27,054 nt of DNA from IMG/VR virus record IMGVR_UViG_3300032050_015224, positions 1-27,054 of that record. One strand, 5' to 3'. Made by a program: the position numbers and the translations under genes. Shown here piece after piece: positions 3,926-22,109 of this stretch (position 1 is its first letter; every line of letters begins with the position of its first letter). The notes under the pieces were generated by a model that ran no database searches, was not told the origin of the DNA, and saw nothing but the letters and a program-made list of their open reading frames with translations. The stretch is from a virus.

Positions 3926-3927
3926 AA

Positions 3928-6160: not shown

Positions 6161-6161
6161 A

Positions 6162-6743: not shown

Positions 6744-7525
6744 TGTTAAGTGTAGTCCTTACAATACACAATAAAGAAAATCTCGTTGAGCGTTGTCTTG
6801 GGTCTATTTTATCTTTGTCAAAAGATATGTCAGAATTAATAATTGTCTTAGATGGTTGTACTGACAATTCTCAATATTTGGTTGAAAAACGACTTGGAAA
6901 CTGCGACATTATTCATAAAGTAGTTTTTACAGACGACGTCTTTGAAACAAAGGCAAATAACGCAGGATTAAGAGAAGCAACCCAAAAATATGTTATACTT
7001 GTGCAAGATGACGTAGTTGTTGACGAATTAGGTTGGGACTCAAGGATAATAAAGCCCTTGCAAGTTTATGATGATATTTTTGCAGTTACGGCAAAAAATG
7101 CGCACAATAACTACTTGACCGGAAAAAAACCAGGCTCAGGACACGATCTTATCAAACATGGTGAAATTACTAACGGTCTTAAGGGCCCTCGTGATAGAAT
7201 CGAAATCAGAGATTCTGTAAACAGGGGACCGCTTGCACTTGATCGTGATAAGGCTTTATCGTTAAATTTTTTTGATGAAGTTTATGCACCTTTTGTTTGG
7301 GATGATCATGACATTTGCTACAGGGCAAAAGAAAAAGGCTGGTTTTGCGGCTCTTATTCAGTTAAATTTATTTCAGAAAAGCAATGGGGAACTACAAGAG
7401 AAAATCCAAAAAGTCATAGCGTTTGGAAAACCTCTAATGAAAAAAACCAAAAAATATTTTACGAAAGATATTACGATCTTTTGCTAAAGCCAAATAAAGA
7501 AACTCTGCACAGGACAGTAAAATGA
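6743..7525 (+). CDS. GT2 family glycosyltransferase
   Basis: The ATG at 6743 overlaps the upstream TAA (TAATG) and is preferred over an in-frame TTG nine bases earlier. The 260-residue protein begins VVLTIHNKENLVERCLGSIL (4-23), the classic GT2 opening. It has D37 for the nucleotide, VQDDVVV (87-93) as the DXD-like metal site, and WDDHDICYRAKEKGW (186-200), which corresponds to the ED/catalytic-base region. There is no membrane segment, so a soluble GT-A enzyme acting in the cytoplasm is expected. The donor sugar cannot be told. It ends with an ATGA overlap into a methyltransferase gene. Confidence 0.85.
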   Translation: MLSVVLTIHNKENLVERCLGSILSLSKDMSELIIVLDGCTDNSQYLVEKRLGNCDIIHKVVFTDDVFETKANNAGLREATQKYVILVQDDVVVDELGWDSRIIKPLQVYDDIFAVTAKNAHNNYLTGKKPGSGHDLIKHGEITNGLKGPRDRIEIRDSVNRGPLALDRDKALSLNFFDEVYAPFVWDDHDICYRAKEKGWFCGSYSVKFISEKQWGTTRENPKSHSVWKTSNEKNQKIFYERYYDLLLKPNKETLHRTVK

Positions 7526-8118
7526 CAAACTATTCACAGGCAAATCAAGATATTTTTGTTCTTGAAGTTTTTGATCATAAAAAAAATGGGACTTTTTTAG
7601 ACCTTGGGTGTAATGATCCCACCAATATTTCAAATACTTTTCTTCTAGAGTCTGAATACGGCTGGAATGGATCCTGTTATGATATAGATGAAAATTTCAT
7701 TAAAAGATTTCAGGGAAAAAGAAACTGTCATTTTGGAATAAAAGATTGCACTAATCTGCAACTTTCTGATTTTCAGAATTCATATTATGATTATTTGTCA
7801 TTAGACCTTGAGCCCGCATCAATAACCTTGAAATGTTTACAAAACATGCCATTTAACTCAATTGAATTTGGGGCTATAACATATGAACATGATGAATATA
7901 GATTTGGCAGCAAAATAAAAAATGAATCAAGAAAAATCTTTCTTGACCACGGATTTACTCTTTTATGCTCTGACGTTCATCACCATCACGCTGGTATAGA
8001 CTATAATTTTGAAGATTGGTATATTAATACCAAGTATGTTTCTTGGGAAAAAGTTAAACACTTACAAAGTGATGGTTTAAATCACCTACAGTTAAAAGCA
8101 AAATTCAGGGGGCAATAA
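7522..8118 (+). CDS. FkbM-like methyltransferase
   Basis: This 198-residue protein opens with SQANQDIFVLEVF (5-17), a conserved lead-in to many FkbM-like enzymes. It continues with GTFLDLGCNDP (23-33) as the SAM-binding motif I and SCYDIDENF (51-59) as motif II. YLSLDLEPAS (91-100) stands where the family normally has 'SLDVEGaE'; the final glycine is missing, a mild departure. HHHHAGIDYNFEDWY near the end is typical of the family tail. It is a second, only distantly similar FkbM-type gene within 1.4 kb of the one at 6162. Methylation of a sugar hydroxyl is the likely role; the exact target is unknown. Confidence 0.75.
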   Translation: MTNYSQANQDIFVLEVFDHKKNGTFLDLGCNDPTNISNTFLLESEYGWNGSCYDIDENFIKRFQGKRNCHFGIKDCTNLQLSDFQNSYYDYLSLDLEPASITLKCLQNMPFNSIEFGAITYEHDEYRFGSKIKNESRKIFLDHGFTLLCSDVHHHHAGIDYNFEDWYINTKYVSWEKVKHLQSDGLNHLQLKAKFRGQ

Positions 8119-9099
8119 ATGAAAAAAGTATTAGTCTGCGGTGCAGGCGGTTTCATCGGTTCCCACCTTGTGAAGAGGTTAAAAAATGAAGGATATTGGG
8201 TAAGGGGAGTAGACCTCAAATATCCTGAATTTTCTCAAACTGCCGCCGATGAGTTTGTCATAGGTGACCTGCGCGATCATAGTACAGTGATGACCGTGAT
8301 GCACCTTAATAAGGCATGGGACGATGGATTTGATGAGATCTATCAGCTTGCTGCTGACATGGGCGGTGCTGGATATATCTTTACGGGAGACCACGATGCC
8401 GATGTGATGCACAACTCGGCGACAATCAATTTGAATGTTGTCTCAAACGCGGTGAAATTTGCTAAAAAGCCCAAAATATTCTATTCATCATCTGCGTGCA
8501 TCTATCCGGCGTATAATCAGACAGATCCAGAAAATCCCCTGTGTTCAGAAGAATCCGCATACCCAGCTGCGCCAGACAGCGAGTATGGGTGGGAAAAGCT
8601 TTTCAGCGAAAGGCTGTATCTATCACACGCCAGAAACTACGGCTTGGACGTGAGAATTGCAAGATTCCACAACATATTTGGTCCTGAGGGAACGTGGCGG
8701 GGCGGAAAAGAAAAAGCACCAGCTGCCATCTGTAGAAAAGTCGCTGAATGTGACGATGGTGGAACCATAGAGGTGTGGGGTGATGGACAACAGACGCGAT
8801 CCTTTCTTTATGTCGATGAGTGTGTAGAAGGTGTTCTCAGGCTGATGAGATCAGATTGTCAATCTACTGTCAACATCGGTTCTGAAGAGATGATCAAAAT
8901 AAATGATCTTGTGAAGATGGTCGCCTTTATAGCTGGCAAGCATATCAATATTAAAAATATTGACGGCCCAGTGGGCGTAAGGGGAAGAAATTCAGATAAC
9001 AACTTAATTTATTTAAAAGTAGGTTGGAAACCTAAACAACCTTTAATAGAAGGTGTTAATATTACCTATGACTGGATTGATCAACAAATAAAAATTTAA
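8119..9099 (+). CDS. GDP-mannose 3,5-epimerase
   Basis: The 326-residue extended short-chain dehydrogenase/reductase matches GDP-mannose 3,5-epimerase, known from plants for making GDP-L-galactose and GDP-L-gulose from GDP-D-mannose. Seen here: GAGGFIG (8-14) for NAD, LAADMGGAGYI (78-88), SSACIYP (124-130), YGWEK (156-160), RFHNIFGPEGTWRGGKEKAP (182-201), WGDGQQTRSF (220-229) and GVRGRNSDNN (286-295). With a constant shift of 18, C127, Y156, K160, K199 and R288 line up with the plant enzyme's C145, Y174, K178, K217 and R306 (numbers recalled from the Arabidopsis enzyme). Length is near full for the catalytic body. AGGGGGC just upstream is a strong ribosome site. The last 160 bases are notably AT-rich compared with the rest. 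Confidence 0.88.
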   Translation: MKKVLVCGAGGFIGSHLVKRLKNEGYWVRGVDLKYPEFSQTAADEFVIGDLRDHSTVMTVMHLNKAWDDGFDEIYQLAADMGGAGYIFTGDHDADVMHNSATINLNVVSNAVKFAKKPKIFYSSSACIYPAYNQTDPENPLCSEESAYPAAPDSEYGWEKLFSERLYLSHARNYGLDVRIARFHNIFGPEGTWRGGKEKAPAAICRKVAECDDGGTIEVWGDGQQTRSFLYVDECVEGVLRLMRSDCQSTVNIGSEEMIKINDLVKMVAFIAGKHINIKNIDGPVGVRGRNSDNNLIYLKVGWKPKQPLIEGVNITYDWIDQQIKI

Positions 9100-9123
9100 A
9101 TTGCAAACCAAAGAGTGTTTGAT

Positions 9124-9933
9124 ATGCCCCATGAAGAGATTTTCAGAAAATTAAATTCAAAGAACTTTGATAATGATTTTTTTCAAAAATGGGGCAAAAC
9201 TTTTTGCCCACACACAAACCAAGAATTAGAGAACTATTGCTACAACAGAACAGATGTTATGTCTAAAGAACTAGAGCAAGAGTTCAAAAGTTTCATTGAA
9301 AATTATAATGATCTATCTTTGCTTGAAAAACAGTCCATTAAGCAATGGATTCTAAAAGAATTAATTGAACCCGCTTGGTCTAAAGGATTTGGGATTAGAC
9401 CTAAATGGTCATGGGAAAACTTTCTTTCAAAAAAAGAAAATGCAAAAACTTATTTAGATATTGGGCCATGCCACGGAATTCATAGCAACATTCTCTACAA
9501 AGAATTTTACAAGGCAAATTTTGATTTCTACTCAGCAGATATACTCCCATGCTATCTTGAGCTACAGACTATTTTTGGAATAAATGCAAGTTACTTTGAT
9601 GCAGACAGAACGTCTTTGTCAAACTTGTATAAGGGCGATTTTTTTGATTTGATCATGTTTGCAGAAGTGCTAGAGCATTTAACGCCAGAGCAAGGTGAGC
9701 AAATATTGGTTGATATATCAAAGATTATTTCTTCAACTGGAAAATTGATGCTATCATTTCCTGTAGATGCTAGACCGCTTAATCAAGAACCATTCGGTCA
9801 TATTTATCAACCAAATGTCGAACAAGTTTCAAAACTTTTATTTAAACTAAATTTACGTTCGCAAGAGTATGTCAAGTTGTGGAGCGGTAAAACTTACCAA
9901 CATGTAATCATCGCGAGTAAAACAGAAATATGA
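9124..9933 (+). CDS. class I SAM-dependent methyltransferase
   Basis: The ATG at 9124 is preferred because AAGAG lies eight bases before it; an in-frame GTG at 9115 is the alternative. The 269-residue protein has an N-terminal helical part of about 105 residues, then a Rossmann-type methyltransferase core: YLDIGPCHGIH (110-120) as motif I, FYSADILPCYLE (135-146) as motif II, and FDLIMFAEVLEHLTPEQG (174-191), the 'D....EvleHl' motif of Methyltransf_11/23 enzymes. It ends in an ATGA overlap. The substrate is unknown; by context a sugar or sugar-linked group is likely. The helical N-terminal part is not recognised. Confidence 0.78.
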   Translation: MPHEEIFRKLNSKNFDNDFFQKWGKTFCPHTNQELENYCYNRTDVMSKELEQEFKSFIENYNDLSLLEKQSIKQWILKELIEPAWSKGFGIRPKWSWENFLSKKENAKTYLDIGPCHGIHSNILYKEFYKANFDFYSADILPCYLELQTIFGINASYFDADRTSLSNLYKGDFFDLIMFAEVLEHLTPEQGEQILVDISKIISSTGKLMLSFPVDARPLNQEPFGHIYQPNVEQVSKLLFKLNLRSQEYVKLWSGKTYQHVIIASKTEI

Positions 9934-10817
9934 TCAATTTTTTAGGATTGAGCGATCGAACATCAGGCCTCATTAGAGGCAAGCAGATTTCATCTAAAAT
10001 TGAAAACTCTGAATTTTTTAACAGTCATGAATCCAAGGTTGGCAAAAATCAATTTTCAATAATGATTAGAAATCACATTCCAGGTATTGCTGAACTAAAT
10101 AAAAAAAACAATAAAATCATAGGCTATGACATTTTAGACATGCCCGTCGGCGACGCTTTTTTTAGAGGAGCCAAAGACATACAGCTAAAAAACTATTGTC
10201 ATGATGTTTATGATTTTTTCATTGTCAACAATGATTTATGCAAGAGTGAATTAGAGCAATTCATAAAAAAGCCTATTTTTGTTATTCCCCATCACACTAC
10301 AAACACTGATTATAAAAAAATAAATTTAAATAAAAAAGTAACTAAAATAGGTTACGTAGGTCTACCCGAGCAATTAAGCCAGGCAGACAAAATTATAAAT
10401 TTTTGTAAAGAAAAAAACATTGATTTTGTCAATGTTTCCCCAAGCACAAGAGAAAAATGCGATGAAATTTTTATGTCTCTTGATATCGGTCTCATCTTTT
10501 TAGATGAGTCATCACACTCTAGTACCGTAATTGAGGCTATAAAAAAATACAAACCAAATACCAAATTATCAAACTTTCAAAGTTATGGAATACCAACAAT
10601 CAGTATTCCTTATGAAAGCTTTGATCAGTTTGGCTATAACGCATACATAAAAATTCAAAATATTGATGAATTGATAGAAAATCTAAATATTTTAATTGAT
10701 GACGTTGATCAAAGAAAATTCCTATCAGATTCTTCATACGAGGTTGCTAAACGATTTCACATAGATGAAATTGTTAAACTTTATAAAAACATTGCTAACG
10801 ATCATAGATTATTATGA
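9930..10817 (+). CDS. GT-B-like glycosyltransferase, divergent
   Basis: The 295-residue protein has no EX7E motif, but its second half reads like the nucleotide-binding domain of a GT-B enzyme: TKIGYVGLPEQLS (138-150) opening a Rossmann unit, SLDIGLIFLD (183-192), and NTKLSNFQSYGIPTISIPY (210-228), the usual 'ssKl..y.a.GiPvi' segment. The last 60 residues form the helical cap. The gene is very AT-rich and overlaps the preceding stop. A transferase role is probable but less sure than for the GT4 genes. Phage or host sugar-phosphate enzymes with a GT-B fold are the alternative. Confidence 0.5.
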   Translation: MINFLGLSDRTSGLIRGKQISSKIENSEFFNSHESKVGKNQFSIMIRNHIPGIAELNKKNNKIIGYDILDMPVGDAFFRGAKDIQLKNYCHDVYDFFIVNNDLCKSELEQFIKKPIFVIPHHTTNTDYKKINLNKKVTKIGYVGLPEQLSQADKIINFCKEKNIDFVNVSPSTREKCDEIFMSLDIGLIFLDESSHSSTVIEAIKKYKPNTKLSNFQSYGIPTISIPYESFDQFGYNAYIKIQNIDELIENLNILIDDVDQRKFLSDSSYEVAKRFHIDEIVKLYKNIANDHRLL

Positions 10818-10836
10818 TCATCAACTTTGGGGTTTT

Positions 10837-11577
10837 ATGATGAGAATTGGCATCTTAGGGTACGGAGAAATTGGAAAAGCCATCCATCAGCTTTACCTAG
10901 CTGATGAAAAATTTAATATCTTTGTCAAAGACATCGAAAGAAATGATGGGCTAATATCATTAGACGTTTTAAACGTCTCAATTCCATACAATGAATCTTT
11001 TGATTTTGTAGAAGCTGTTGTGCAAAATGTCATTGAATCTTGCGCAAAGGTCGTGATTATTCACTCTACGGTGGCAATAGGCACAACTTCAAAAATAAAA
11101 GAAAGGTTGCCAAACACAATTGTTGCACACTCCCCGTGCAGGGGGGTGCATCCTCACCTGTATGAAGGACTGTTGACTTTTGAAAAATTAATCGGTTCGC
11201 CTGTCCATGCAGATGCCACGAAAGTTTCAGAACACTTTGATTTTTTAAGAATAAAAAATCGTGTGTGTAAAAATGCTGAAACAAGCGAATTAGCCAAATT
11301 ACTTGACACAAGCTATTATGGATTATGCATTGCATATCACGGCGAAGCGCTCAAGGCTTGCGAACATTTTGACGCAGACTTTAGCGATGTCATGACGTTT
11401 TATAACTCTACCTACAATGACGGTTATAAAAAACTTGGGAAAACAAATGTTGTAAGGCCGGTTTTAACTCCACCAACTAATGGTATTGGCGGTCACTGTG
11501 TGATACAGAATGCAGAGCTGTTAGATAAACAATTTAAATCAATTGCATTAGATTTAATTTTAAAATATAAGGTTTAA
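10837..11577 (+). CDS. short UDP-glucose/GDP-mannose dehydrogenase-like protein
   Basis: The start is ATG at 10837 (or the adjacent ATG at 10840), 19 bases after the previous stop. The 246-residue protein has GILGYGEIGKAI (5-16) for NAD, IIHSTVAIGTTSKI (74-87), matching the 'kSTVppGtt' segment, the helix AETSELAKLLDTSYYG (147-162) with the conserved lysine K154, and NGIGGHC (215-221) with the catalytic cysteine C221. It departs from active enzymes in three ways: the stretch after the cysteine is VIQN rather than P-K/V-D, the active-site Asn four residues after the lysine is Thr158, and the C-terminal UDP-binding domain is absent. It may bind a nucleotide sugar without full four-electron oxidation. 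Confidence 0.68.
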   Translation: MMRIGILGYGEIGKAIHQLYLADEKFNIFVKDIERNDGLISLDVLNVSIPYNESFDFVEAVVQNVIESCAKVVIIHSTVAIGTTSKIKERLPNTIVAHSPCRGVHPHLYEGLLTFEKLIGSPVHADATKVSEHFDFLRIKNRVCKNAETSELAKLLDTSYYGLCIAYHGEALKACEHFDADFSDVMTFYNSTYNDGYKKLGKTNVVRPVLTPPTNGIGGHCVIQNAELLDKQFKSIALDLILKYKV

Positions 11578-11584
11578 ATTCTTT

Positions 11585-12352
11585 ATGCTAAAAAAAAATT
11601 TAAAAAATTTATCAAATCAGTATGCAAAAATATTTGCAACATCCACACCATTTAATCACATCGTAATAGATGATTTGTTTACACAAGAATTTTTGCATGA
11701 ATTGTTGGAAAATTTTCCAAGCTCAACTGAAAAAGTGTGGTGGTTGTACGACAACCCACTAGAAAAAAAGTTGGCTTTCAATGAAATTGAAAAATTACCT
11801 GTAATATTTCATAATTTTTTTGAATTTATGAAGTCAAAAGACTTCATAAATTTTTTAGAAGAAATTTCTGGGATTTATGGGATAATAGCTGATCCCAAAT
11901 TAAACGGTGGTGGCTTACACCAAATCTTGCGGGGCGGAAAACTTGACATTCATGAAGACTTCAATATTCATAAAGAGTTAAATGCGTTTAGAAAATTAAA
12001 CGTAATCTTATATTTGAATGCTGATTGGAAAGAATCATATGGTGGTGATCTTGAGATGTGGGACGCAAAGATGTCGCAATGCGTAAAAAAGATTTCACCG
12101 TTGTTTGGAAGAATGGTTATCTTTCGAACAGACCAGACGTCAAACCACGGACACCCAGAGCCTCTAAACTGCCCAGAAGATAAATCTAGAAAGTCTTTGG
12201 CTACGTATTACTACGTTCCCGTTGCTAATGAGCAAAAAGTCGAATATAGGTCAACAAACTACAAAAAAATACCAGGAATAATAGAGGCACCTGAAATTGA
12301 TGAATTAAGAAAATTAAGGTTAATTGGAAGAATTGAAAACAGGACAACTTGA
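11585..12352 (+). CDS. 2-oxoglutarate/Fe(II)-dependent oxygenase
   Basis: This 255-residue protein resembles prolyl-4-hydroxylase-type 2-oxoglutarate oxygenases. The iron ligands are visible as IHEDFN (H123, D125) and NHGHPEPL (H188 most likely, H190 alternative), and RKSLATYYY (202-210) gives the arginine that holds 2-oxoglutarate. LNVILYLNADWKESYGGDLEMW (spanning 138-159) is the typical family strand-turn-strand with its GG-L-E/W ending. The N-terminus (FNHIVIDDLF, 23-32) is also typical. In this setting it may hydroxylate a sugar, a lipid or a protein side chain that is later glycosylated; that target is inference. It starts 7 bases after the previous gene. Confidence 0.82.
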   Translation: MLKKNLKNLSNQYAKIFATSTPFNHIVIDDLFTQEFLHELLENFPSSTEKVWWLYDNPLEKKLAFNEIEKLPVIFHNFFEFMKSKDFINFLEEISGIYGIIADPKLNGGGLHQILRGGKLDIHEDFNIHKELNAFRKLNVILYLNADWKESYGGDLEMWDAKMSQCVKKISPLFGRMVIFRTDQTSNHGHPEPLNCPEDKSRKSLATYYYVPVANEQKVEYRSTNYKKIPGIIEAPEIDELRKLRLIGRIENRTT

Positions 12353-13323
12353 TGATCACTCACTTTGGAATTAATACACGAGATCACATCTTAAATTTTC
12401 AATCAGAGCTGCATAAAAGAATATTGACAGGCCATTCAAAACTTGATCACCGGCTTTCAACTGAAAATTTAGGAAAAAATTTTGGTGCCTTTATTTACGA
12501 AAAAAACGAAAAAAGGTTACTGGTACTGATAGACGCCGATGACGGGAGTGGGGGCACGACCGCAGATTGCAAAATCATTTGGTCTGCCTACAACAACGTC
12601 CTTGAATCGTATAAACCGCAAGACGTGCTGGTACTGAAATCCCAAGTAAACACAGACCCAGAATACAATCAATTCTACCCTTTCAAATCAGACGTTCATG
12701 CATTAGGAATTTTTAGCAATGACCCGCGCACAATTCAAAGTACAAAGAAGAAGTTGTCACAATCTGACAAAGATATTGATGTATTTTTTGCTGGAGGATC
12801 GAAGTTTGCTAAATTAAAGCCACATGCGTGGCCTAAAAATCGTGACCCAAAAAGATGGTGGCCCGGTGCATCAAACAGGGGCTATCAAGTGCTTAATGAC
12901 ATAAAAAGCAGAAGAAAAGATCTAAACGTTCAGATTTTTGATCAAATATTGCAACCACATGAATTTTATGACTATATCAGTAGAAGCAAGATTTGTATAG
13001 ATCTACCTGGAATCGGCCTTTCTTCAAGAAAATTTTATGAATATATGGTACTTGAAAAGTGTGTCTTGGCGTTAAAACAGCAAATCACGCCATGGACATG
13101 CCAAGAAAATATTCACTATTCATCGATGGGATACGATCTTGACTTCCTTTCTATGGAAAGAAAGATTGATGAACTGCTTCTCGACGATAGATGGAAAGAA
13201 TTAGAAAAAAACGTATCAGAAATTCAACAAGAACTAACCATGGATTTCATGATCCAGCGGGCAATAAACATAATAGACACAAAGGTGTCGTCTATGACGA
13301 GTCAAGCATTATTTATTTTATGA
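12352..13323 (+). CDS. GT-B-like glycosyltransferase (exostosin-like)
   Basis: ATG at 12352 is chosen because AGGAC lies six bases upstream; a TTG three bases earlier overlaps the previous stop and is the alternative. The 323-residue protein carries KDIDVFFAGGSKFAKL (140-155), opening the C-terminal Rossmann unit, and HEFYDYISRSKICIDLPGIG (203-222) followed by SRKFYEYMVLEKCVLAL (225-241). This last pair closely parallels the SRSRIVIDAWGGG...FYEAVGAKSC arrangement in the product of the gene at 2990, so the two may be distant relatives. LLVLIDADDGSGGTT (57-70) lies in the N-terminal half. A glycosyltransferase role is likely. Confidence 0.58.
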   Translation: MITHFGINTRDHILNFQSELHKRILTGHSKLDHRLSTENLGKNFGAFIYEKNEKRLLVLIDADDGSGGTTADCKIIWSAYNNVLESYKPQDVLVLKSQVNTDPEYNQFYPFKSDVHALGIFSNDPRTIQSTKKKLSQSDKDIDVFFAGGSKFAKLKPHAWPKNRDPKRWWPGASNRGYQVLNDIKSRRKDLNVQIFDQILQPHEFYDYISRSKICIDLPGIGLSSRKFYEYMVLEKCVLALKQQITPWTCQENIHYSSMGYDLDFLSMERKIDELLLDDRWKELEKNVSEIQQELTMDFMIQRAINIIDTKVSSMTSQALFIL

Positions 13324-14003
13324 ATTATTGCTACATGCACTACCTCGTTTCTTCCGATAGCGGAAAGTTTTCACACGAAATTTTTCAAAATATTTACAGG
13401 CAAATCGTCGAAGCAAAATTGCTAGAAGACCTGCAAGAAATACGAGTTGTAACAGTTGGAAACAAGACTGATTTAAAAACTGATTTTTCTACTTACGAAA
13501 AAGTTTTTCACGTTAATCACGTTAACGACAGGTATTCTTATGAATTTCCCACGTTGGAAAAAATGGCAAGTGACGCAAGTGAAATGAATGATGACGATCA
13601 AATACTTTACATGCACCTTAAAAATGCCTCAAAACCTTCACTGATCAACAAGAAATGTGAATGGACACAATCGATGCTTAATTGTGTGGTGCACAGTCAC
13701 GAAACTTGCCGGCAAAAGTTGGCACATCACAATTCGGTGGGAACAAGATTCTCCGAAGCATATAAGGTTAAAAATAAAGTAGCAAGAAACTATTCAGGAA
13801 ATTTTTGGTGGACGACAGCTTCACACGTAAAGAACCTACCGTATCCTAGTAAAGAAAATCTCATGAAAACGCATGGATTTTTAGTGGATTTTAGAAAAAA
13901 CAAGAACCCATCGTCCCCGTCTTCTGATAACTGGAGGTATTTGCCTGAACTTTGGGTGTGTTTACTAGACATGGATGAAACACATAAAATGTGCGGATTA
14001 TAA
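13320..14003 (+). CDS. glycosyltransferase-like protein with 'SGNFWW' motif
   Basis: The ATG at 13320 overlaps the preceding TGA and gives 227 residues; earlier in-frame starts would run through the neighbour. Two stretches mark a recognisable group of polysaccharide-cluster proteins: ILYMHLKNAS (95-104), like the group's 'iLYlHtKG', and YSGNFWWTTASHVKNLP (158-174), like its 'fSGNFWWa...yi..LP'. The second motif ends in a Trp-rich loop thought to sit in the active site of GT-A-like enzymes. The lysine-glycine of 'HtKG' is LKN here. Family resemblance is from memory; enzymatic activity is not established. The C-terminal residues run over the next coding start region. Confidence 0.55.
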   Translation: MNYCYMHYLVSSDSGKFSHEIFQNIYRQIVEAKLLEDLQEIRVVTVGNKTDLKTDFSTYEKVFHVNHVNDRYSYEFPTLEKMASDASEMNDDDQILYMHLKNASKPSLINKKCEWTQSMLNCVVHSHETCRQKLAHHNSVGTRFSEAYKVKNKVARNYSGNFWWTTASHVKNLPYPSKENLMKTHGFLVDFRKNKNPSSPSSDNWRYLPELWVCLLDMDETHKMCGL

Positions 14004-14016
14004 TCCTACGGCAACT

Positions 14017-14022
14017 AAAGGA
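14017..14022 (+). promoter_or_regulatory. ribosome binding site AAAGGA for the 14029 gene
   Basis: AAAGGA is followed by six bases and then ATG at 14029. It decides against the longer in-frame start at 13975, which lies inside the previous gene and has no such site. Confidence 0.7.
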
Positions 14023-14028
14023 AAGCTT

Positions 14029-14685
14029 ATGTCAAACAATGATCTGCTGAGTATTGGTAAAAAGTTTGAAACTGACAAAGTCACACATTTCTATCTTCCA
14101 CATTATGAAAAAATTTTATCTCACCTAAGAGACTCTCACATTAAAATTCTTGAAATCGGGGTCTTCAAGGGTGCAAGCATCAGGATGTGGAGGGAATATT
14201 TTCCAAACGCTGAGATACATTGCGTTGACATAAATGAGATCAACTTGTCAGATCTAAACAACGTCACCATGCACATTGTTGACTGTGATAGCAAAGAATC
14301 CTTGAAATCTTTTGCAGAAAAATTGGGAGAATTTGACGTGATCATAGATGACGGCGGTCACACAATGAGACAGCAGCAAAATGCGCTTGAGGTTTTGTGG
14401 CCAAACCTAAAAAAAGGCGGAATCTTCATCATGGAAGATATGCACACGAGTATCAAGGAATTCTACCCGGAGTATAACGTAGAGAACCAACCAACAACGT
14501 ATGATTTATTTATTTCTTTGCTGCAAAAAGAGCGTTTTCAGAGCTCGTACATCTCTGCGACCTCTTTTGAAGACATAAAGAGTTCAGTAGACAAAGTAGA
14601 AATAATCTGGAGCAAAAAAATTATTTCTAATAATCCAAAAAGGCCGTTTAACGCCAGCATCACATCGTACCTGACAAAGATTTAA
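14029..14685 (+). CDS. class I SAM methyltransferase (macrocin O-methyltransferase-like)
   Basis: The 218-residue protein opens with a cap region, KKFETDKVTHFYLPHYEKIL (11-30), followed by ILEIGVFKGASIRMW (40-54) as the SAM-binding motif. IHCVDINE (63-70) supplies the ribose-binding aspartate, and VIIDDGGHTMRQQQNAL (104-120) with GGIFIMEDMHTS (130-141) forms the metal/acceptor side. This arrangement is characteristic of the sugar O-methyltransferases acting on macrolide sugars (TylE/MycE/MycF type), which use a divalent metal bound by the aspartates. By analogy it probably methylates a deoxysugar or uronic-type sugar in this pathway. It is separated by 25 bases from the gene before it and by 9 from the epimerase after it. 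Confidence 0.8.
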   Translation: MSNNDLLSIGKKFETDKVTHFYLPHYEKILSHLRDSHIKILEIGVFKGASIRMWREYFPNAEIHCVDINEINLSDLNNVTMHIVDCDSKESLKSFAEKLGEFDVIIDDGGHTMRQQQNALEVLWPNLKKGGIFIMEDMHTSIKEFYPEYNVENQPTTYDLFISLLQKERFQSSYISATSFEDIKSSVDKVEIIWSKKIISNNPKRPFNASITSYLTKI

Positions 14686-14694
14686 ACCAAAGAT

Positions 14695-15735
14695 ATGAAA
14701 ACAATCTTAATCACAGGCGCATCAGGTTTGATTGGATCTGAAGTCGCAAGATTCTTTCTTGCGGCAGGACATCGTGTTGTCGGTATAGACAACAACATGA
14801 GAAAAACATTTTTTGGTATTGGCGGCGATACGTCATCTGTGACGAGTGAGCTGTGCAAAACCCCTCATTACACTCACGAAGACTCAGACATCAGGGATTT
14901 CAAAAAAATCCTCGAGATATTTGGAATTCATAAGCCGGACTACATCGTCCACGCAGCTGCACAACCGTCACACGATCTTGCGGCCAAAATTCCACATGAT
15001 GACTTTGCCACGAATGCAGTGGGTACCCTAAACGTACTAGAGTCAGCTAGGCTAACAACTCCGGAATCTCCGTTTGTACACGTCAGCACCAATAAAGTGT
15101 ATGGTGATACTCCGAATCGTTTGAACTTGATCGAAAAAGAATCAAGATTCGATTACGCAGACGAAAAGTATTGCAATGGTATCAACGAATCGATGTCAAT
15201 AGACCAGACGACACACTCTCTATTTGGGGTGTCAAAGACATCTGCTGATCTTCTGGCACAGGAGTATGCACGATACTTTGGTATGCCCGTAGGCGTGTTC
15301 AGAGGAGGCTGCCTCACAGGCCCACAGCATGCAGGTGTTGAATTACATGGATTCTTGTCGTACATCGTAAAGTGTGCAGTAAAAGGCACCCCATACACAA
15401 TTTATGGACACAAAGGAAAGCAGGTCAGAGACCAGATACATTCATACGACGTTTGCACGGCATTCCATGAGTTTATGAAAAACCCACGCCCGGGCGAAGT
15501 CTACAACATCGGCGGCGGAGTGCAGAATAACGCATCGATACTCGAAACAATAGGCATCCTGAGTAGCTTGGGTCATAAACTAGACTTTAATGTGTCGGAC
15601 AAAGCGCGTATCGGAGATCACATATGTTACATAAGTGACATGTCCAAGTTTCGATCCCACTATCCTAGTTGGAATATCACAAAGACACTCCCGACAATCG
15701 TTGCAGAAATAATCGACTCAGTGAGGACAAATTGA
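14695..15735 (+). CDS. CDP-paratose 2-epimerase-like SDR
   Basis: The 346-residue extended SDR has TGASGLIG (7-14) for NAD and HAAAQPSHDLAAKIP (86-100). It also has STNKVYGDTPN (131-141), NGINESMSID (161-170), RGGCLTGPQHAGVE about 60 bases of codons later, and KQVRDQIHSYDV. These match the CDP-paratose/CDP-tyvelose 2-epimerase group, which inverts C2 of a dideoxysugar nucleotide. The SDR catalytic YxxxK is FGVSK (177-181), with Phe in place of Tyr; related bacterial sequences I recall also carry Phe there, so this may mark a subfamily rather than a defect. The real substrate is therefore uncertain. Its stop overlaps the next start as TTGA. Confidence 0.75.
   Translation: MKTILITGASGLIGSEVARFFLAAGHRVVGIDNNMRKTFFGIGGDTSSVTSELCKTPHYTHEDSDIRDFKKILEIFGIHKPDYIVHAAAQPSHDLAAKIPHDDFATNAVGTLNVLESARLTTPESPFVHVSTNKVYGDTPNRLNLIEKESRFDYADEKYCNGINESMSIDQTTHSLFGVSKTSADLLAQEYARYFGMPVGVFRGGCLTGPQHAGVELHGFLSYIVKCAVKGTPYTIYGHKGKQVRDQIHSYDVCTAFHEFMKNPRPGEVYNIGGGVQNNASILETIGILSSLGHKLDFNVSDKARIGDHICYISDMSKFRSHYPSWNITKTLPTIVAEIIDSVRTN
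15723..15727 (+). promoter_or_regulatory. ribosome binding site GAGGA before a TTG start
   Basis: GAGGA lies four bases before TTG at 15732. No ATG or GTG in this frame lies near the gap, and the N-terminal strand KKITFGIVNCN must be included for a complete GT2 fold, so this site supports TTG as the true start. Confidence 0.55.
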
Positions 15736-16673
15736 AAAAGATCACCTTTGGAATCGTCAATTGCAACAGGCTTTATTATCTTAAAAGTTGCCTTGAGTCG
15801 CTGATAGACACCACCAAAGATTACGAAAACAAGGAATTGATCGTCATCGATAATGCATCTATCGAGCATGGAACGTCAGATTACCTTCTGAGCCTCGAAG
15901 AGAGAGGTGTAAAGGTGATCAGACAAGGCACGAGAAATTACGCCAATGAGTTTGCAATCGGATTAAATAAGATAGTCTCGATGGCATCTGGGGACTATAT
16001 TTGCATGTTGCAGGGGGACATGCAATTTGTCTTGAACGGTTGGTTGCAAGACGTGATGTCATTTTTGGAAATGAACGTTGACATCGTGGGATCTTACACG
16101 TTAGACGCACAACGACAGGTCACTCATAGATCCCATGACATCAGGCAATTTTCACCTGAAAGACAACCTGCCTCAGGTAAGAACAGGTTTTTTGCCGACC
16201 TGACACGCGACAAGATCTGTCCGTCAGCAGATGCAATCTACAGCAGAGCTGTCATTGAACAGATAGCACCGTGGCATGAAAAGAACGTAAATCACGAAGG
16301 CGGAATGGATTCCGAGAATGAAATGCGATTCAAGGTCAAGAAGTTGATGTCAGAGGGTAAGATGAAAGATTACGTTGCCACTCTTTCAGCCGTTCCTCAG
16401 GCCGTTGCAATATACACCGATATAAGAGGCACGCAAGGCAGAGTGAGAGGAAACAAGCGTTATGGTGCATATTGGCCCGCAAAGGATGAAACCGGGTGGA
16501 AGTACTACGAATACATAAATGAAGGCGACCATGATTTGAATTACCCGAATTCAATTGAGGCAGTCGCAAGACCAATCGGTTTCAACAATCCAATCGATCA
16601 GAACGGCAATTGGCTAAAGAACCCAATCAGACCGGAGACGGCGACGGTTTTGGACTGGGTAGAATTAACGTGA
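15732..16673 (+). CDS. GT2 family glycosyltransferase
   Basis: With a TTG start overlapping the upstream TGA, the product is 313 residues. It opens ITFGIVNCNRLYYLKSCLES (4-23), the GT2 nucleotide-binding strand and helix, then ELIVIDNAS (35-43) and GDYICMLQGDMQFV (87-100), where QGDMQ carries the metal-binding acid. HEGGMDSENEMRFK in the second half matches the GT2 region holding the catalytic acid. The C-terminal 100 residues (YGAYWPAKDETGW onward) are Trp/Tyr-rich and not recognised. No membrane segment is visible. It is the last gene before the 59-base leader of the split dehydrogenase. Confidence 0.8.
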   Translation: MKKITFGIVNCNRLYYLKSCLESLIDTTKDYENKELIVIDNASIEHGTSDYLLSLEERGVKVIRQGTRNYANEFAIGLNKIVSMASGDYICMLQGDMQFVLNGWLQDVMSFLEMNVDIVGSYTLDAQRQVTHRSHDIRQFSPERQPASGKNRFFADLTRDKICPSADAIYSRAVIEQIAPWHEKNVNHEGGMDSENEMRFKVKKLMSEGKMKDYVATLSAVPQAVAIYTDIRGTQGRVRGNKRYGAYWPAKDETGWKYYEYINEGDHDLNYPNSIEAVARPIGFNNPIDQNGNWLKNPIRPETATVLDWVELT

Positions 16674-16732: not shown

Positions 16733-17785
16733 ATGTCTCAAAATTCTATCGCTGTGATCGGTCAAGGTTTCGTAGGTGGTTCAATCACCACTGTTTTCTC
16801 GGAAAGAGGTTTCAAGGTTCACACATATGACAAGGCGGGAAAGTGTGCCGAAGGCAGCCTTGGAAATGCAGCATCTACGGGTGATCTTGTGGCCTCTTGT
16901 GAGGCACAAGATAATTTCTCAGGGGTTTACTTTGTGTGTTTACCCACTCCCATGTATGAGGACGGAGAGGCCGACCTGTCCATCGTGGGTGGTGTGCTTC
17001 AGGAGCTGGCAGATATCCCCGGAGAACGAATCGCGGTAGTAAAGTCAACAGTACCACCCGGTTCCACAGAGAGTTGGAACAAAAAGTTTGAAGGAACCGG
17101 TCTCAAGGTTGTCTTCAATCCTGAGTTCCTCACAGAGGCAAACGCCCTCGATGACATGAGAAACCAGAATCGAATAATCCTCGGTGGACCTCGGCCCTGG
17201 ATCAACAGGGTAAAGCAAGTGTTTCAAACAGCATTTCCCAAGGTTCCGCTCATCAAAACGTCTTCAACTACTGCGGAAATGGTGAAGTACGTGACTAATT
17301 GTTTCTTAGCCACAAAGGTCTCATTTGCGAACGAGATGTCGCAAATTTGTGAGGCTTTGGATAAGGACGGTCTAAACATTGACTACGATAAAGTCGTTGA
17401 ATACGCAAAGTATGATGTAAGATTGGGAAATTCTCATTGGTCAGTTCCCGGTCCCGATGGGGATCGTGGGTACGGCGGGCATTGTATTGTCGGTGACACC
17501 GCCGTGCTAACCGAAAAAGGCAGCGTCTTAGTTCAAGATATCAAACCATATGATTCAGTCATTAGTTCAAATCACACTTTAAATGAAACGAACACTAAGC
17601 GAGTTGAAGAAATTCATGCTCGTGCTTATCATGGTGAAGTGATCAAATTCACAGTCATTGTCAACGGTACTGAAACGTCAGTAACCTGTACACCGTGTCA
17701 TATCCTACCAATCAAGAGAAACAATCAAATTTTGCTCATTCAAGCATCTGAAATTTTAGAAACAGATGAACTTTTTACCATATGA
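16733..17785 (+). CDS. ugd: UDP-glucose 6-dehydrogenase N-part fused to N-intein
   Basis: This 350-residue protein is the first half of a broken UDP-glucose 6-dehydrogenase (UDP-glucose to UDP-glucuronate, two NAD). Residues 1-250 are extein: IAVIGQGFVGG (6-16) binds NAD, FVCLPTPM (67-74), VVKSTVPPGST (102-112), FNPEFLTEANALDDM (128-142) for the sugar, AEMVKYVTNC (181-190) with catalytic K185 and N189, and DGDRGYGGH (242-250). The next residue starts an intein (C251, reading CIVGDTAVLT) that runs to the stop. On its own the gene lacks the catalytic cysteine of the extein. The missing part is encoded at 18644-18796. The ribosome site AGGAG sets the start. Recognition of the enzyme is firm. Confidence 0.93.
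   Translation: MSQNSIAVIGQGFVGGSITTVFSERGFKVHTYDKAGKCAEGSLGNAASTGDLVASCEAQDNFSGVYFVCLPTPMYEDGEADLSIVGGVLQELADIPGERIAVVKSTVPPGSTESWNKKFEGTGLKVVFNPEFLTEANALDDMRNQNRIILGGPRPWINRVKQVFQTAFPKVPLIKTSSTTAEMVKYVTNCFLATKVSFANEMSQICEALDKDGLNIDYDKVVEYAKYDVRLGNSHWSVPGPDGDRGYGGHCIVGDTAVLTEKGSVLVQDIKPYDSVISSNHTLNETNTKRVEEIHARAYHGEVIKFTVIVNGTETSVTCTPCHILPIKRNNQILLIQASEILETDELFTI
17483..17782 (+). other. N-terminal half of a split intein
   Basis: One hundred codons follow the extein's GGH. The half begins with the nucleophile C1 in block A (CIVGDTAVLT, 1-10). Block B is VTCTPCHILPI (67-77), with T70 and H73 as the TxxH pair that activates the first peptide bond. The tail, ILETDELFTI, is acidic, while the partner half begins basic, as is usual for natural split inteins that attract each other by charge. 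It is followed directly by a stop codon and no endonuclease domain in frame. Function as a splicing domain is inferred from the motifs. Confidence 0.9.
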
Positions 17786-17807
17786 AAAGCAATGACCGCC
17801 AATACCT

Positions 17808-18515
17808 ATGGGTATGAAAAAAATTGACATAAGTTGTAAAAACTGCCAAGTTTTGTTCACAGTTTCTTACAAAGAAAGAAAAAGAAAATTTTGTTCTACA
17901 AAATGTGTGAGCCTATTCCAAACCGGAGAAAAAAATCCATCGTTTGGAAAAACTTATCGAACAAAAGAAACTCATCCTGAGTGGGCAAAAAAGGTTTCAA
18001 AGACTCACCTTGAAAAAGGATATATTTCAGGTGAAAAAAATCCGATGAAAAATCCCGAGATTGCAGTCAAAGCAGGGAAGAAAAGATCTGAAAGGTTCAA
18101 GTCAGATGAAAATTTTAAAAACATGACACGTGAACTTGTAAAAAAGGCTTGGGCTGAAGGAAAGTTTGATGGCGTCAAAGTAGGAAAGTGTAAATGGTTT
18201 GACTTTGAAAAATCTGACGGCTCCATTTGTAAGCTACAGGGAACATGGGAACTTGCATACGCAAGATGGCTACAAAATGAAGGAGTAAATTTTGTAGCCC
18301 ACAAAGGAAGAATCAAGTATAAGGATGAAAACGGTTCAGAGAAATCATACTATCCAGATTTTTACCTTCCTGATTCCGATGAATATATTGATATCAAAAA
18401 TAAATATCACTTTAGTTTAAATGAAAAAAAATGGGAAAATATAAAAAAGTCTAATCCTGAGTTGAAGATAAGACTTGTTTTTGATGATGAACTCAAGGAA
18501 AAAAACATTTTATGA
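17808..18515 (+). CDS. free-standing homing endonuclease, PD-(D/E)XK type
   Basis: The 235-residue protein (start 17808, or ATG 17814) has three parts. A zinc-finger-like CX2C...CX3C lies at C10/C13 and C29/C33. Two NUMOD3-like repeats, GEKNPSFGK (40-48) and SGEKNPMKNPE (74-84), are DNA-contact modules common in phage homing enzymes. The nuclease domain has GTWELAYARWL (145-155) with E148, YYPDFYLP (181-188) with D184, and YIDIK (193-197) with D195 and K197. That catalytic pattern resembles Vsr-related homing endonucleases found in marine fractured genes and phage introns. No Shine-Dalgarno site is clear before it. Its stop overlaps the start of the C-intein gene (ATGA), linking translation of the two. 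Confidence 0.82.
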   Translation: MGMKKIDISCKNCQVLFTVSYKERKRKFCSTKCVSLFQTGEKNPSFGKTYRTKETHPEWAKKVSKTHLEKGYISGEKNPMKNPEIAVKAGKKRSERFKSDENFKNMTRELVKKAWAEGKFDGVKVGKCKWFDFEKSDGSICKLQGTWELAYARWLQNEGVNFVAHKGRIKYKDENGSEKSYYPDFYLPDSDEYIDIKNKYHFSLNEKKWENIKKSNPELKIRLVFDDELKEKNIL

Positions 18516-18643
18516 AAACTGCAAAAATCGAAAAAATTGAAAGATTGTCGTACACCGGAACAGTTCACAATTTAGAACTTTCATCCCTTGATGAGAAAAA
18601 TGATGATTTGTTTTGGGTGTGCAATAACATTGTTGTCCACAAT
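18512..18643 (+). other. C-terminal half of a split intein
   Basis: The 44 residues start MKTAKIEKIERL, a basic lead-in like those of known split C-inteins. Block F is YTGTVHNLELSS (14-25) and block G is NNIVVHN (38-44), ending in the penultimate H43 and terminal N44 that cyclises to release the intein. The next residue is the extein cysteine. Together with the N half the intein would be 144 residues, the size of a mini-intein without an in-frame endonuclease. Confidence 0.9.
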
Positions 18644-18799
18644 TGTTTTCCAAAAGATATCAACGCTTTAATTAAGCTTTCTAAGAATTTAGACGTAAAT
18701 CCAGTCGTTCTGCAGGCCGCTTGGGAAAAGAACAAGGAGGTCAGAAAAGACAAAGATTGGGAGAGACAATTAGGGCGTGCTGTCTCAAAAAGAAGCTGA
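18512..18799 (+). CDS. ugd: C-intein fused to C-terminal part of UDP-glucose dehydrogenase
   Basis: This 95-residue protein is the second half of the broken dehydrogenase. After the C-intein (1-44), the extein starts CFPKDINALIKLSKNL, with the catalytic cysteine at position 45. It then runs through a helix, VVLQAAWEKNKEVRKDKDW, ending GRAVSKRS. That is the central dimerisation helix of UGDH. The C-terminal UDP-binding domain of classical enzymes (about 100 more residues) is not present, and the terminator follows immediately. Ligated to the first half it gives 301 residues, as opposed to roughly 390-400 in bacterial UGDH. Whether the short form is active cannot be told from sequence. Confidence 0.9.
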   Translation: MKTAKIEKIERLSYTGTVHNLELSSLDEKNDDLFWVCNNIVVHNCFPKDINALIKLSKNLDVNPVVLQAAWEKNKEVRKDKDWERQLGRAVSKRS

Positions 18800-19698: not shown

Positions 19699-20946
19699 AT
19701 GGAAAAAAAGAAAACAATTTTAATGCTTTGTGATCATCCTTTGGCGGCTAGCGGTGTGGGAACTCAGGCTAGATGGCTGATCAACGGATTGATTTCTACG
19801 GGCAAGTACAAGTTCTATGTTTTTGGTGGTGCAATAAAGCATTCAAACTACGATGAACAAGTTGTAAATCCCGATTTTATCATTAAGCCCACAAATGCTT
19901 TCGGAGACAGAAATCTGCTGAGGCAAGCGCTTGCACAGATCAAACCTGATGCAATGTTATTGTTCACCGATCCACGTTTCTTTATTTGGGTGTGGCAGAT
20001 GGAAGATGAGATCCACCAAATCTGCCCGATAACTTACAATCACCTCTGGGACAATCCTCCGTGGCCGGAGTTCAACAGGGTATTATACGAAAGTACAGAT
20101 CTGATCAATTGTATCAACTGGCCGACGTATGAAATGGTTCACAAAAGATTTCCAGACAAGACCAACTACATACCTCATTCAGTTCCTGAATGGATATTCA
20201 AGCCTCTTCCCAGGGATGAAAAAGAAAAATTCAAAATCAAACTCCTCGGGAAGGAAAAGAAGGATCACTTCATCGGCCTGTACGTGAGCAGAAATGCAAG
20301 AAGAAAACTTGCGAGTGACATTATAAATTCGTGGAAGATTTTCCTAGATGAACTTGAGGCAAAACATGGGCATAGGAATGCCACCATGATCATGCATACA
20401 GAACCTTTTGATAATGAAGGTCCAAATCTTCACGAGGTTGTCAACTTGTTTGGTCTACAGAAACACGTCCTCTTCTCGAAAGAAAGGATAGAGTTTGAGG
20501 AAATGTCATCTCTTTACAACATATCTGACGTGCTTGTCAATAGGTCGTGCAACGAAGGATTTGGACTTGGGGTTCTTGAGGCAAAGATGTGTGGAACTCC
20601 CGTGATTGCAATTAAAACAGGTGGTTTGACGCGACAGGTGGAAGATCACGAAACCGGATTTGAATACGGAGTAGCCCTTGAGCCGGAAGTGAGGTCTTTA
20701 GCCGGTAGCCAAAGTGTTCCATACATTTATGAAGACTTTGTGTCTCACAAATCAGTCGCAAATGCTTTCATGAAGATGTACGAATTAGGTCCTGAAGATA
20801 GAGAGCAACTCGGGCTGAAGGCAATGGAGCACGCACGTAAAAATTACGGTATGAACGACATGATCAAAAGGTGGGATGAAACCTTGACCAACTGCATCGA
20901 TACGTGGAAGCAGACATACAAGCGTTGGGAGATAACCGAGATATGA
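19699..20946 (+). CDS. GT4 family glycosyltransferase
   Basis: At 415 residues this is a full-length GT4 enzyme. The N-terminal donor loop is HPLAASGVGTQARWL (13-27). The second domain opens with HFIGLYVSRNARRKLAS (190-206), where 'R.. .rK' residues bind the donor phosphate, and the EX7E pair is E286/E294 in NEGFGLGVLEAKMCGTPV (285-302), followed by TGGL. The C-terminal helical cap is complete. It overlaps the start of a second GT4 gene, and both sit downstream of the terminator, separate from the main sugar cluster. The sugar and acceptor are unknown; a virion-protein target is possible but not shown. TAGG lies six bases before the ATG. Confidence 0.88.
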   Translation: MEKKKTILMLCDHPLAASGVGTQARWLINGLISTGKYKFYVFGGAIKHSNYDEQVVNPDFIIKPTNAFGDRNLLRQALAQIKPDAMLLFTDPRFFIWVWQMEDEIHQICPITYNHLWDNPPWPEFNRVLYESTDLINCINWPTYEMVHKRFPDKTNYIPHSVPEWIFKPLPRDEKEKFKIKLLGKEKKDHFIGLYVSRNARRKLASDIINSWKIFLDELEAKHGHRNATMIMHTEPFDNEGPNLHEVVNLFGLQKHVLFSKERIEFEEMSSLYNISDVLVNRSCNEGFGLGVLEAKMCGTPVIAIKTGGLTRQVEDHETGFEYGVALEPEVRSLAGSQSVPYIYEDFVSHKSVANAFMKMYELGPEDREQLGLKAMEHARKNYGMNDMIKRWDETLTNCIDTWKQTYKRWEITEI

Positions 20947-22109
20947 TGAAGAAAAGTGTGATCTTACGTGGCCCCGTGTTGACGCAGTCTGGTTATGGTG
21001 TTCACTGTCGTCAGTTGGCAAAGTGGCTTTTATCAAAACCCAACATTGACGTGAAATTTCAGTTATTGCCGTGGGGTGATACTCCGTGGTTTATAAATCC
21101 TGACCATGACAATGGATTTATTGGAAAGGTGATGGAAAGGACCACCGATCTAAGGGGTACAGCCGATGTTTCTGTTCAGCTGCAACTTCCAAACGAATGG
21201 GACACTCAAATCGCCCGACATAACGTAGGTCTCACTGCAGGCGTAGAGACAGATAGGTGCAATCCGGCATGGCTGAACGACATAAACAAGATGGATACTG
21301 TCATTGTACCGTCGACACATGTAAAGAAATGTTTTGAGTCCACGGGCAAAACAAATAAGCAGATACATGTCGTTCCAGAGTCATATCTTGAAAGGCTGGA
21401 TCATCACGAGAACGTTGACAATAATTTGTTTGATGTACCAACAGGCTTTAATTTTTTAGTCTTTGGACAATTGACCGGAAACAATCCTTACAACGATAGA
21501 AAGAACACGTTTTTTTCAATCAAGTGGCTATGTGAAACGTTTAAGGACGATAAAGACGTAGGAATCTTTGTAAAGACAAACACGAGTCGGAATACAAAGA
21601 TTGACAGACAATCTGTGTTAAGTATTTTTAACACAATGTTGTCAGAGGTCAGAAAGGGTCCATATCCAAAGGTTTATTTGGTTCACGGGGACATGAATGA
21701 TGACGAAGTGATCTCGTTATATAAACACCCAAAGATCCACGCTCTTGTGTCAGCGACTCGAGGAGAAGGATACGGACTACCGCTTTTGGAAGCGTCTGTT
21801 GCTGGTCTTCCGGTCATTGCAACCAACTGGTCAGGACATCTTGACTTCTTGAACCAAGGACGCTTTATTTCCGTTGACTACAAAATGGAAAATGTGCATT
21901 CTTCTAGAATAGACAACAAGATATTTTTGCCCGGAATGCAGTGGGCGTTCCCAAATGAAGATGACTTCAAGAAAAAAGTGTTGAAATTCAGACAATCACC
22001 CACAATTCCCAAGCAGTGGGCAATGAGCCTGTCTGAGAAACTAAGTACAACACACAACTTTGGGTCTATTTGTAGTATGTACGATGCCATTTTGGGAGAA
22101 GTGATTTGA
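20943..22109 (+). CDS. GT4 family glycosyltransferase
   Basis: The start is ATG 20943, overlapping the previous TGA (ATG 20946 is an alternative), giving 388 residues. It has the donor loop LTQSGYGVHCRQLAKWL (13-29), the domain linker IHVVPESYLE (141-150), LVFGQLTGNNPYNDRKN (172-188) and the EX7E pair E275/E283 in GEGYGLPLLEASVAGLPV (274-291), then TNWSGHLDFL. The 'RK' at 186-187 matches the usual phosphate-binding residues. It is a neighbour but not a close copy of the gene at 19699. The two probably act in one pathway as a coupled pair. Its stop overlaps a TTG start (TTGA). Confidence 0.87.
   Translation: MMKKSVILRGPVLTQSGYGVHCRQLAKWLLSKPNIDVKFQLLPWGDTPWFINPDHDNGFIGKVMERTTDLRGTADVSVQLQLPNEWDTQIARHNVGLTAGVETDRCNPAWLNDINKMDTVIVPSTHVKKCFESTGKTNKQIHVVPESYLERLDHHENVDNNLFDVPTGFNFLVFGQLTGNNPYNDRKNTFFSIKWLCETFKDDKDVGIFVKTNTSRNTKIDRQSVLSIFNTMLSEVRKGPYPKVYLVHGDMNDDEVISLYKHPKIHALVSATRGEGYGLPLLEASVAGLPVIATNWSGHLDFLNQGRFISVDYKMENVHSSRIDNKIFLPGMQWAFPNEDDFKKKVLKFRQSPTIPKQWAMSLSEKLSTTHNFGSICSMYDAILGEVI

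What the first reader, a model, noticed from the sequence alone, without database searches (positions are those of the whole stretch)
16733..18799. UDP-glucose dehydrogenase broken by a split intein exactly at its catalytic cysteine
Two separate genes hold complementary halves of UGDH joined to complementary intein halves (100 + 44 residues). The joint falls between GGH and CFPKD, so the first residue of the C-extein is both the +1 splicing nucleophile and the enzyme's catalytic cysteine. No enzyme activity is possible before trans-splicing. The fractured-gene layout is known for DNA synthesis and repair enzymes in marine phages; a carbohydrate enzyme as host gene would extend that list.
Basis: partly seen in the sequence, partly recalled or inferred. 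Interest (0 to 1): 0.92.

Follow-up and report, generated by a model that had tools for sequence, protein, structure and literature searches.

The report
Phage sugar-enzyme gene fractured by split intein
In this phage, the gene for a sugar-nucleotide enzyme is broken in two exactly at the amino acid that does the chemistry; each half carries half of a self-splicing protein element, and a DNA-cutting gene sits between them, so this is a mobile parasite lodged in an enzyme's active site, a known kind of arrangement in a new kind of gene that recurs in at least a dozen phages.

Summary
Confirmed and extended. UGDH-N plus a 100-residue IntN (16733-17785) and a 44-residue IntC plus UGDH-C (18512-18799) are complementary. 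Joining the exteins gives a gapless 301-aa (32.9 kDa) UDPG/GDP-mannose dehydrogenase family protein, with the junction GGH|CFPKD at the catalytic cysteine. This is the 'fractured gene' layout. The same site is fractured in at least 11 other distinct IMG/VR phages, two keeping only an endonuclease remnant. At least 84 relatives are uninterrupted. The same endonuclease family also sits directly downstream of 11 intact UGDHs. In those the site is never GGHCFPKD (0/11), against 9/10 fractured genes, which suggests target-site immunity; phylogeny-corrected tests lack power. A near-identical pair (L041/L017) swaps state exactly at the insertion point, and the nested endonucleases are not one clade, so the element moves. 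However, UGDH's catalytic cysteine is a well-used intein site: at least 96 bacterial and archaeal loci carry inteins there. The new part is the split version with a free-standing endonuclease, in phages, outside DNA metabolism. Splicing, DNA cutting and enzyme activity are untested.

The parts
16733..17482 (+). N-extein: residues 1-250 of a UDP-glucose/GDP-mannose dehydrogenase family protein, ending GYGGH; SD-like AGGAGTGG upstream
   Evidence: PF03721 6e-24, PF00984 8e-19, PHROG 9148 UDP-glucose dehydrogenase 3e-48; start region read
17483..17782 (+). IntN, 100 aa, CIVGDT...TCTPCH...ILETDELFTI (stop 17783-17785)
   Evidence: TIGR01445 aligns from residue 251, sub-threshold; profile hits to KlbA, PI-PkoII and NrdJ-1 inteins; 11 homologous IntNs
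17808..18515 (+). Free-standing homing-endonuclease-like gene, 235 aa: Cx2C...Cx3C zinc finger, NUMOD3-like GEKNPxFGKTYRTKE repeats, PD-(D/E)XK nuclease core (PDF...DIK)
   Evidence: Phage_endo_I 4e-6 (below curated cut-off) and weak NUMOD3; T7 endonuclease I structures 6e-5; alignment of 10 homologues with invariant P183 D184 F185 D195 K197; AlphaFold model with only weak Foldseek matches, the nuclease hits mostly PD-(D/E)XK
18512..18643 (+). IntC, 44 aa, MKTAKIEKIE...DDLFWVCNNIVVHN; start codon overlaps the nuclease stop codon (ATGA), AAGGA upstream
18644..18796 (+). C-extein, 51 aa, CFPKDINALI...; Cys is both the +1 splicing residue and the catalytic Cys position of the UGDH family (stop 18797-18799)
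   Evidence: PF00984 profile 62-93; gapless alignment of joined exteins to PDB UGDHs

Best explanation
A mobile 'fractured gene' element occupies the catalytic-cysteine codon of a short phage UDPG/GDP-mannose-dehydrogenase-family gene. One transcript (inferred) encodes UGDH-N-IntN, a free-standing PD-(D/E)XK homing endonuclease, and IntC-UGDH-C, the last probably translationally coupled to the endonuclease stop (ATGA overlap). IntN and IntC associate and trans-splice through Cys1, the block-B His, the terminal His-Asn and Cys+1, ligating GGH to CFPKD and restoring the active site; Cys+1 then becomes the catalytic cysteine. The endonuclease is inferred to cut intact GGHCFPKD-coding DNA in co-infecting phages, so that repair copies in the intein halves, the endonuclease and flanking extein. 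The same endonuclease family also lives just downstream of intact UGDHs, where changed codons at the site would protect the resident gene. Shown: anatomy, recurrence at one site, empty sites, remnant alleles, an allele swap exactly at the site, non-monophyly of the nested endonucleases. Inferred: splicing, cutting, homing, enzyme activity.
For: Complementary halves rebuild one domain with no gap. Splicing residues are invariant in 11-12 alleles, with rough dN/dS of 0.07-0.24 in the intein halves (dS near saturation). Same layout and site in 11 further distinct phage loci: L041, L042, L083, L084, L086/L087, L091, L092, L093, L094, L096/L098, L218. At least 84 uninterrupted relatives, with clean empty-site alignment of L218 to L199/L204. 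L042 and L218 keep only 72-78 aa of the endonuclease 3' end, still overlapping or abutting the IntC start. L041 (fractured) and L017 (intact, endonuclease downstream) are 95-96.5% identical up to the insertion point and 88% in the next gene, but 60% in C-extein and 54% in endonuclease. Fractured alleles are scattered on the UGDH tree (8 changes for 10 rows). One clade for the nested endonucleases is rejected (AU p 0.013). Site motif GGHCFPKD: fractured 9/10, endonuclease-downstream 0/11 (Fisher 3.4e-5).
Against: Nothing was expressed; splicing, DNA cutting and enzyme activity are untested. The window's own IntN matches single intein HMMs only weakly (TIGR01445 16.2 bits, cut-off 24.5; PT-HINT 0.042); the case rests on the family profile. 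The site-immunity pattern is directional but not significant once phylogeny is allowed for. The endonuclease assignment rests on modest profile scores and the fold search gave no hit at E <= 0.001. The protein lacks PF03720, so UGDH activity may not be its function.
Confidence: 0.87

Rival explanations
1. The split is a decayed remnant: a contiguous intein was disrupted by an endonuclease insertion, and the halves no longer splice; the UGDH is dead or works as two non-covalent pieces.
For: In Aeh1-type genes-in-pieces phage NrdA, pieces work without splicing (PMC3653736). L042 and L218 show decay of the endonuclease.
Against: Splicing residues are invariant in 11-12 diverged alleles; low dN/dS in both intein halves at near-saturated dS; the intein halves outlast loss of the endonuclease (L042, L218).
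Confidence: 0.07
2. The ORF between the halves is not the mobility agent of this element but an unrelated free-standing endonuclease that merely landed there.
For: It has its own ORF, and relatives occur beside intact UGDH genes.
Against: Endonucleases of one family lie in the same slot in 9 further fractured loci and directly downstream of 11 intact UGDHs, i.e. the close homologues are tied to this gene; sharp allele switch at the insertion point in L041/L017.
Confidence: 0.1
3. The GGS, GGHCFVKD and similar site variants beside the endonuclease reflect lineage history, not protection against the nuclease.
For: Many site variants also occur without any adjacent endonuclease (39 of 82 intact genes); phylogenetic pair tests p 0.06-0.5.
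Against: 0/11 versus 9/10, the direction is never reversed in independent pairs, and the altered codons differ between loci (S for H; V, I, C or S for P; L or S in the GG).
Confidence: 0.4

Closest known systems
Fractured genes with split inteins and a free-standing endonuclease (Dassa et al. 2009, NAR 37:2560; paper not held, content from memory)
   Same: Host enzyme broken in two, each half fused to an intein half, a free-standing endonuclease ORF between them, phage origin; endonuclease also found as stand-alone insert
   Different: From memory those host genes are DNA synthesis and repair enzymes and the new endonuclease family is Vsr-related; here the host gene is a nucleotide-sugar dehydrogenase and the endonuclease has a zinc finger, NUMOD3-like repeats and a lysine-containing PD-(D/E)XK core resembling T7 endonuclease I
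Contiguous inteins at the catalytic Cys of cellular UGDH (type case Mja UDPGD intein of MJ1054, from memory; at least 96 loci here)
   Same: Exactly the same insertion point, GGx|C...HN|CFPKD
   Different: Contiguous, 178-495 aa, in cellular genomes; the phage split inteins form a separate clade, 100/99 support against 24 of them
gp41-1, NrdJ-1, IMPDH-1 split inteins
   Same: Two-piece inteins of phage or metagenome origin; NrdJ-1 matched by the IntN profile at 5e-6
   Different: Different host genes; gp41-1 matched only at 0.04
Free-standing endonuclease targeting an intron site in cyanophage psbA / collaborative homing (Zeng 2009, Bonocora and Shub 2009, as cited in PMC2814812 and PMC10448857)
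   Same: An endonuclease outside the splicing element lies next to the gene that contains its presumed target
   Different: Here the splicing element is a split intein, and the same endonuclease family is found both inside it and outside

Membership tests
Fractured gene (split intein + free-standing endonuclease) | Conserved enzyme split into two ORFs, each fused to a complementary intein half | tested here: met
Fractured gene (split intein + free-standing endonuclease) | Separate endonuclease ORF between the halves | tested here: met
   17808-18515
Fractured gene (split intein + free-standing endonuclease) | Phage genome | tested here: met
   IMG/VR virus record; baseplate wedge and late sigma factor PHROGs in the window
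Fractured gene (split intein + free-standing endonuclease) | Vsr-related endonuclease family (half of the original loci, from memory; not required of all members) | tested here: not met
   No Vsr Pfam match; PDF...DIK core and T7 endonuclease I similarity instead
Class 1 intein (HINT, Cys1...HN/Cys+1) | Block A Cys1, block B TxxH, terminal His-Asn, Cys+1 | tested here: met
Class 1 intein (HINT, Cys1...HN/Cys+1) | Protein splicing activity | not testable with these tools
   needs co-expression
UDP-glucose dehydrogenase | NAD-binding and central domains with catalytic GGxCFxKD | tested here: met
UDP-glucose dehydrogenase | C-terminal UDP-binding domain PF03720 | tested here: not met
   absent in the joined product and in two intact relatives tested, L003 and L004; hence called UGDH-family, not proven UGDH
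Homing endonuclease | Nuclease fold plus DNA-binding modules at a homing locus | tested here: met
   (profile scores modest)
Homing endonuclease | Site-specific cleavage of the empty allele | not testable with these tools
   indirect only: site pattern and allele swap

The most novel reading that the evidence does not exclude
One gene shows a full homing cycle for a split intein: empty susceptible site, free-standing endonuclease beside an intact gene with an altered (immune) active-site codon context, the same endonuclease family nested in a fractured split intein, and endonuclease-loss remnants. The endonuclease changed between the outside and inside positions more than once, so this would be collaborative homing acting on an intein, and a visible route by which split inteins arise.
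Probability: 0.45. Interest if true: 0.78.

Novelty: new variant of a known kind. Interest (0 to 1): 0.62.

Why it matters
It takes the fractured-gene arrangement out of DNA metabolism into a carbohydrate-pathway gene, with the splice junction on the catalytic residue itself, so ligation and active-site assembly would be one event. The dozen alleles, empty sites, remnants and the outside/inside endonuclease pairs make the long-standing question of how inteins and endonucleases come together, and why some inteins are split, testable in one gene family. It also offers a set of diverse new natural split inteins with Cys+1 junctions, and a candidate case of active-site codons being shaped by a selfish nuclease.

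Tried and rejected
Window IntN+IntC joined against PDB by phmmer: only a bacterial intein-like domain at 0.17; the family profile was needed. IntC profile against PDB: nothing meaningful. Foldseek of the endonuclease model: no hit at E <= 0.001. Foldseek of the UGDH-N+IntN model: the 50 matches shown are all UGDH-family enzymes, so it says nothing on the HINT half. Close link between the phage inteins and the cellular UGDH-site inteins: rejected, two separate clades, though other phage split inteins were not in that tree. Literature: 'intein' with UDPGD, MJ1054, UGDH or 'nucleotide sugar dehydrogenase' gave no paper, with aglM two unrelated ones; Campylobacter phage IBB_35 has a UDP-glucose dehydrogenase and inteins, but in other genes. 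Dassa 2009 is not held. Cultured phages: no UGDH with this split found in INPHARED, endonuclease at most 33% identity. A mismatch count failed (empty reference set) and is not used; only the listed flanks are. Chance expectation for the HNCFPKD pattern was not computed; UGDH context was confirmed by profile instead.

Full report
WHAT IS THERE. The two ORFs of the finding exist as described. UGDH-N ends ...GPDGDRGYGGH and runs on into 100 residues beginning CIVGDT and containing TCTPCH. A second gene begins with 44 residues ending IVVHN, followed by CFPKDINALI.... Its product has a CxxC...CxxxC zinc finger, NUMOD3-like repeats and a PD-(D/E)XK core (PDF...DIK) that resembles T7 endonuclease I. 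Foldseek gives only weak matches; those that are nucleases are mostly PD-(D/E)XK enzymes such as Bax1, RecE, PvuRts1I and R2. This is the layout called a fractured gene.

IS IT A SPLIT INTEIN. TIGR01445 (intein N-terminal splicing region) aligns from its first position to residue 251, the first residue after GGH, though below its cut-off. A profile from 11 homologous IntNs finds the KlbA intein (8e-11), PI-PkoII (6e-8) and the split NrdJ-1 intein (5e-6); 7 of 11 members match Pfam Intein_splicing at E up to 1 (best 2e-7). Cys1, the block-B Thr and His, and the terminal His-Asn are invariant. Intein halves evolve under constraint (rough dN/dS 0.07-0.24, dS near saturation). Joined, the exteins give 301 aa, 32.9 kDa, one continuous PF00984 match (87 bits) and a gapless alignment to solved UGDHs at GG[H/S]CFPKD. 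So the +1 residue is the family's catalytic cysteine; the role of that Cys comes from established UGDH enzymology. The joined product and two intact relatives tested lack the UDP-binding domain PF03720, so the protein is a short member of the family whose substrate is not known.

RECURRENCE. Scans of IMG/VR with the N-half, C-half, endonuclease, IntN and IntC give 12 distinct fractured loci including the window, all at the same junction: window (= L001, an identical stretch of a 132,858-bp record), L041, L042, L083, L084, L086/L087, L091, L092, L093, L094, L096/L098 and L218. In L086/L087 the upstream extein is cut off by the contig end. L096/L098 is a different dehydrogenase of the same superfamily, at GGG|CHPRD. 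L042 and L218 retain only the last 72-78 residues of the endonuclease, still abutting the IntC start. Against these stand at least 84 uninterrupted relatives with no endonuclease of this family. L218 aligns to L199 and L204 as a clean insertion. The window's closest intact relative is 77% identical.

MOBILITY. On a UGDH tree built without the site residues, the 10 fractured alleles need 8 changes, i.e. they are scattered. L041 and L017 are close relatives in two states: DNA 95-96.5% identical up to the insertion point and 88% in the next gene, but the C-extein (60%) and endonuclease (54%) differ strongly. This is the footprint expected of a double-strand-break-driven replacement starting at the site; only 200 bases of the L041 upstream flank are available. 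Members of the same endonuclease family lie directly downstream of 11 distinct intact UGDHs. In the endonuclease tree the window and L041 group with downstream ones (92/85), while the other nested ones form another clade (99/98); one clade of nested endonucleases is rejected (AU p 0.013). So the endonuclease changed position more than once.

SITE PATTERN. At the DNA level, 9 of 10 fractured genes have GG-CAY|TGY-TTY-CCN-AAR-GAY; the 11 intact genes with an adjacent endonuclease all depart from it at the His and/or Pro codon (Fisher 3.4e-5). Intact genes without the endonuclease have GGHCFPKD in 43 of 82 (0/11 with it; Fisher 7e-4; six RGHCFPKD genes were counted as 'other', which is conservative). 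With phylogeny allowed for, the direction is never reversed but too few independent pairs exist (p 0.06-0.5). Site immunity is therefore a hypothesis, not a result.

WHAT IS KNOWN. The Mja UDPGD intein is the case recalled from memory; a Methanococci locus (L285) is in the list. So the site is a classic active-site intein site. The phage inteins form a clade apart from 24 of these (100/99). Split inteins with an endonuclease between the halves are known from phage DNA-metabolism genes (Dassa 2009, from memory; cited in PMC7090010 and PMC3653736). No held paper was found that links inteins with phage UGDH. Free-standing endonucleases that serve a neighbouring splicing element are known for group I introns (PMC2814812, PMC10448857); the set here looks like the intein counterpart.

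VERDICT. It is a new variant of a known kind: a fractured gene in a nucleotide-sugar dehydrogenase, with a PD-(D/E)XK endonuclease family that also lives next to intact copies of the same gene. Splicing, cutting and enzyme activity remain to be shown.

Noticed in passing
L360 166-2237 (same record as L042, IMGVR_UViG_3300009155_006780, about 1-2.2 kb): A second fractured gene in the L042 phage: a DinG-like helicase N-half + IntN (...GIIHC|IDENEPVMM...) and IntC + C-half (...VVHN|CHSYKVANY), 48 bp apart, no endonuclease between.
   Followed up: partly
window 10765-11577: A second UGDH-family protein (270 aa, P0004) with a GIGGHC motif but without the following K/D; a homologue lies directly upstream of UGDH in L003.
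   Followed up: partly
L042 5771-6004 and L218 5190-5426: Endonuclease remnants kept next to the IntC start; retention might serve translational coupling of IntC.
   Followed up: no
L088/L089/L090/L095, e.g. L088 3878-5080: An endonuclease of this family followed by an ORF resembling only the last part of UGDH (..NRDWEDMKGRAVVDG) without a catalytic-Cys motif: possibly a decayed fractured gene.
   Followed up: no
uncultured phage records H32-H34 (NC_055895, MT774379, NC_055872): Weak IntC-like matches (E 0.03-0.04) inside annotated terminase large subunit genes, possible inteins in those terminases.
   Followed up: no
window 125-16673 and 19699-22109: Large glycan/nucleotide-sugar gene cluster (glycosyltransferases, epimerases, FkbM methyltransferase, MocA oxidoreductase) in a phage with late sigma and baseplate genes downstream.
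   Followed up: partly
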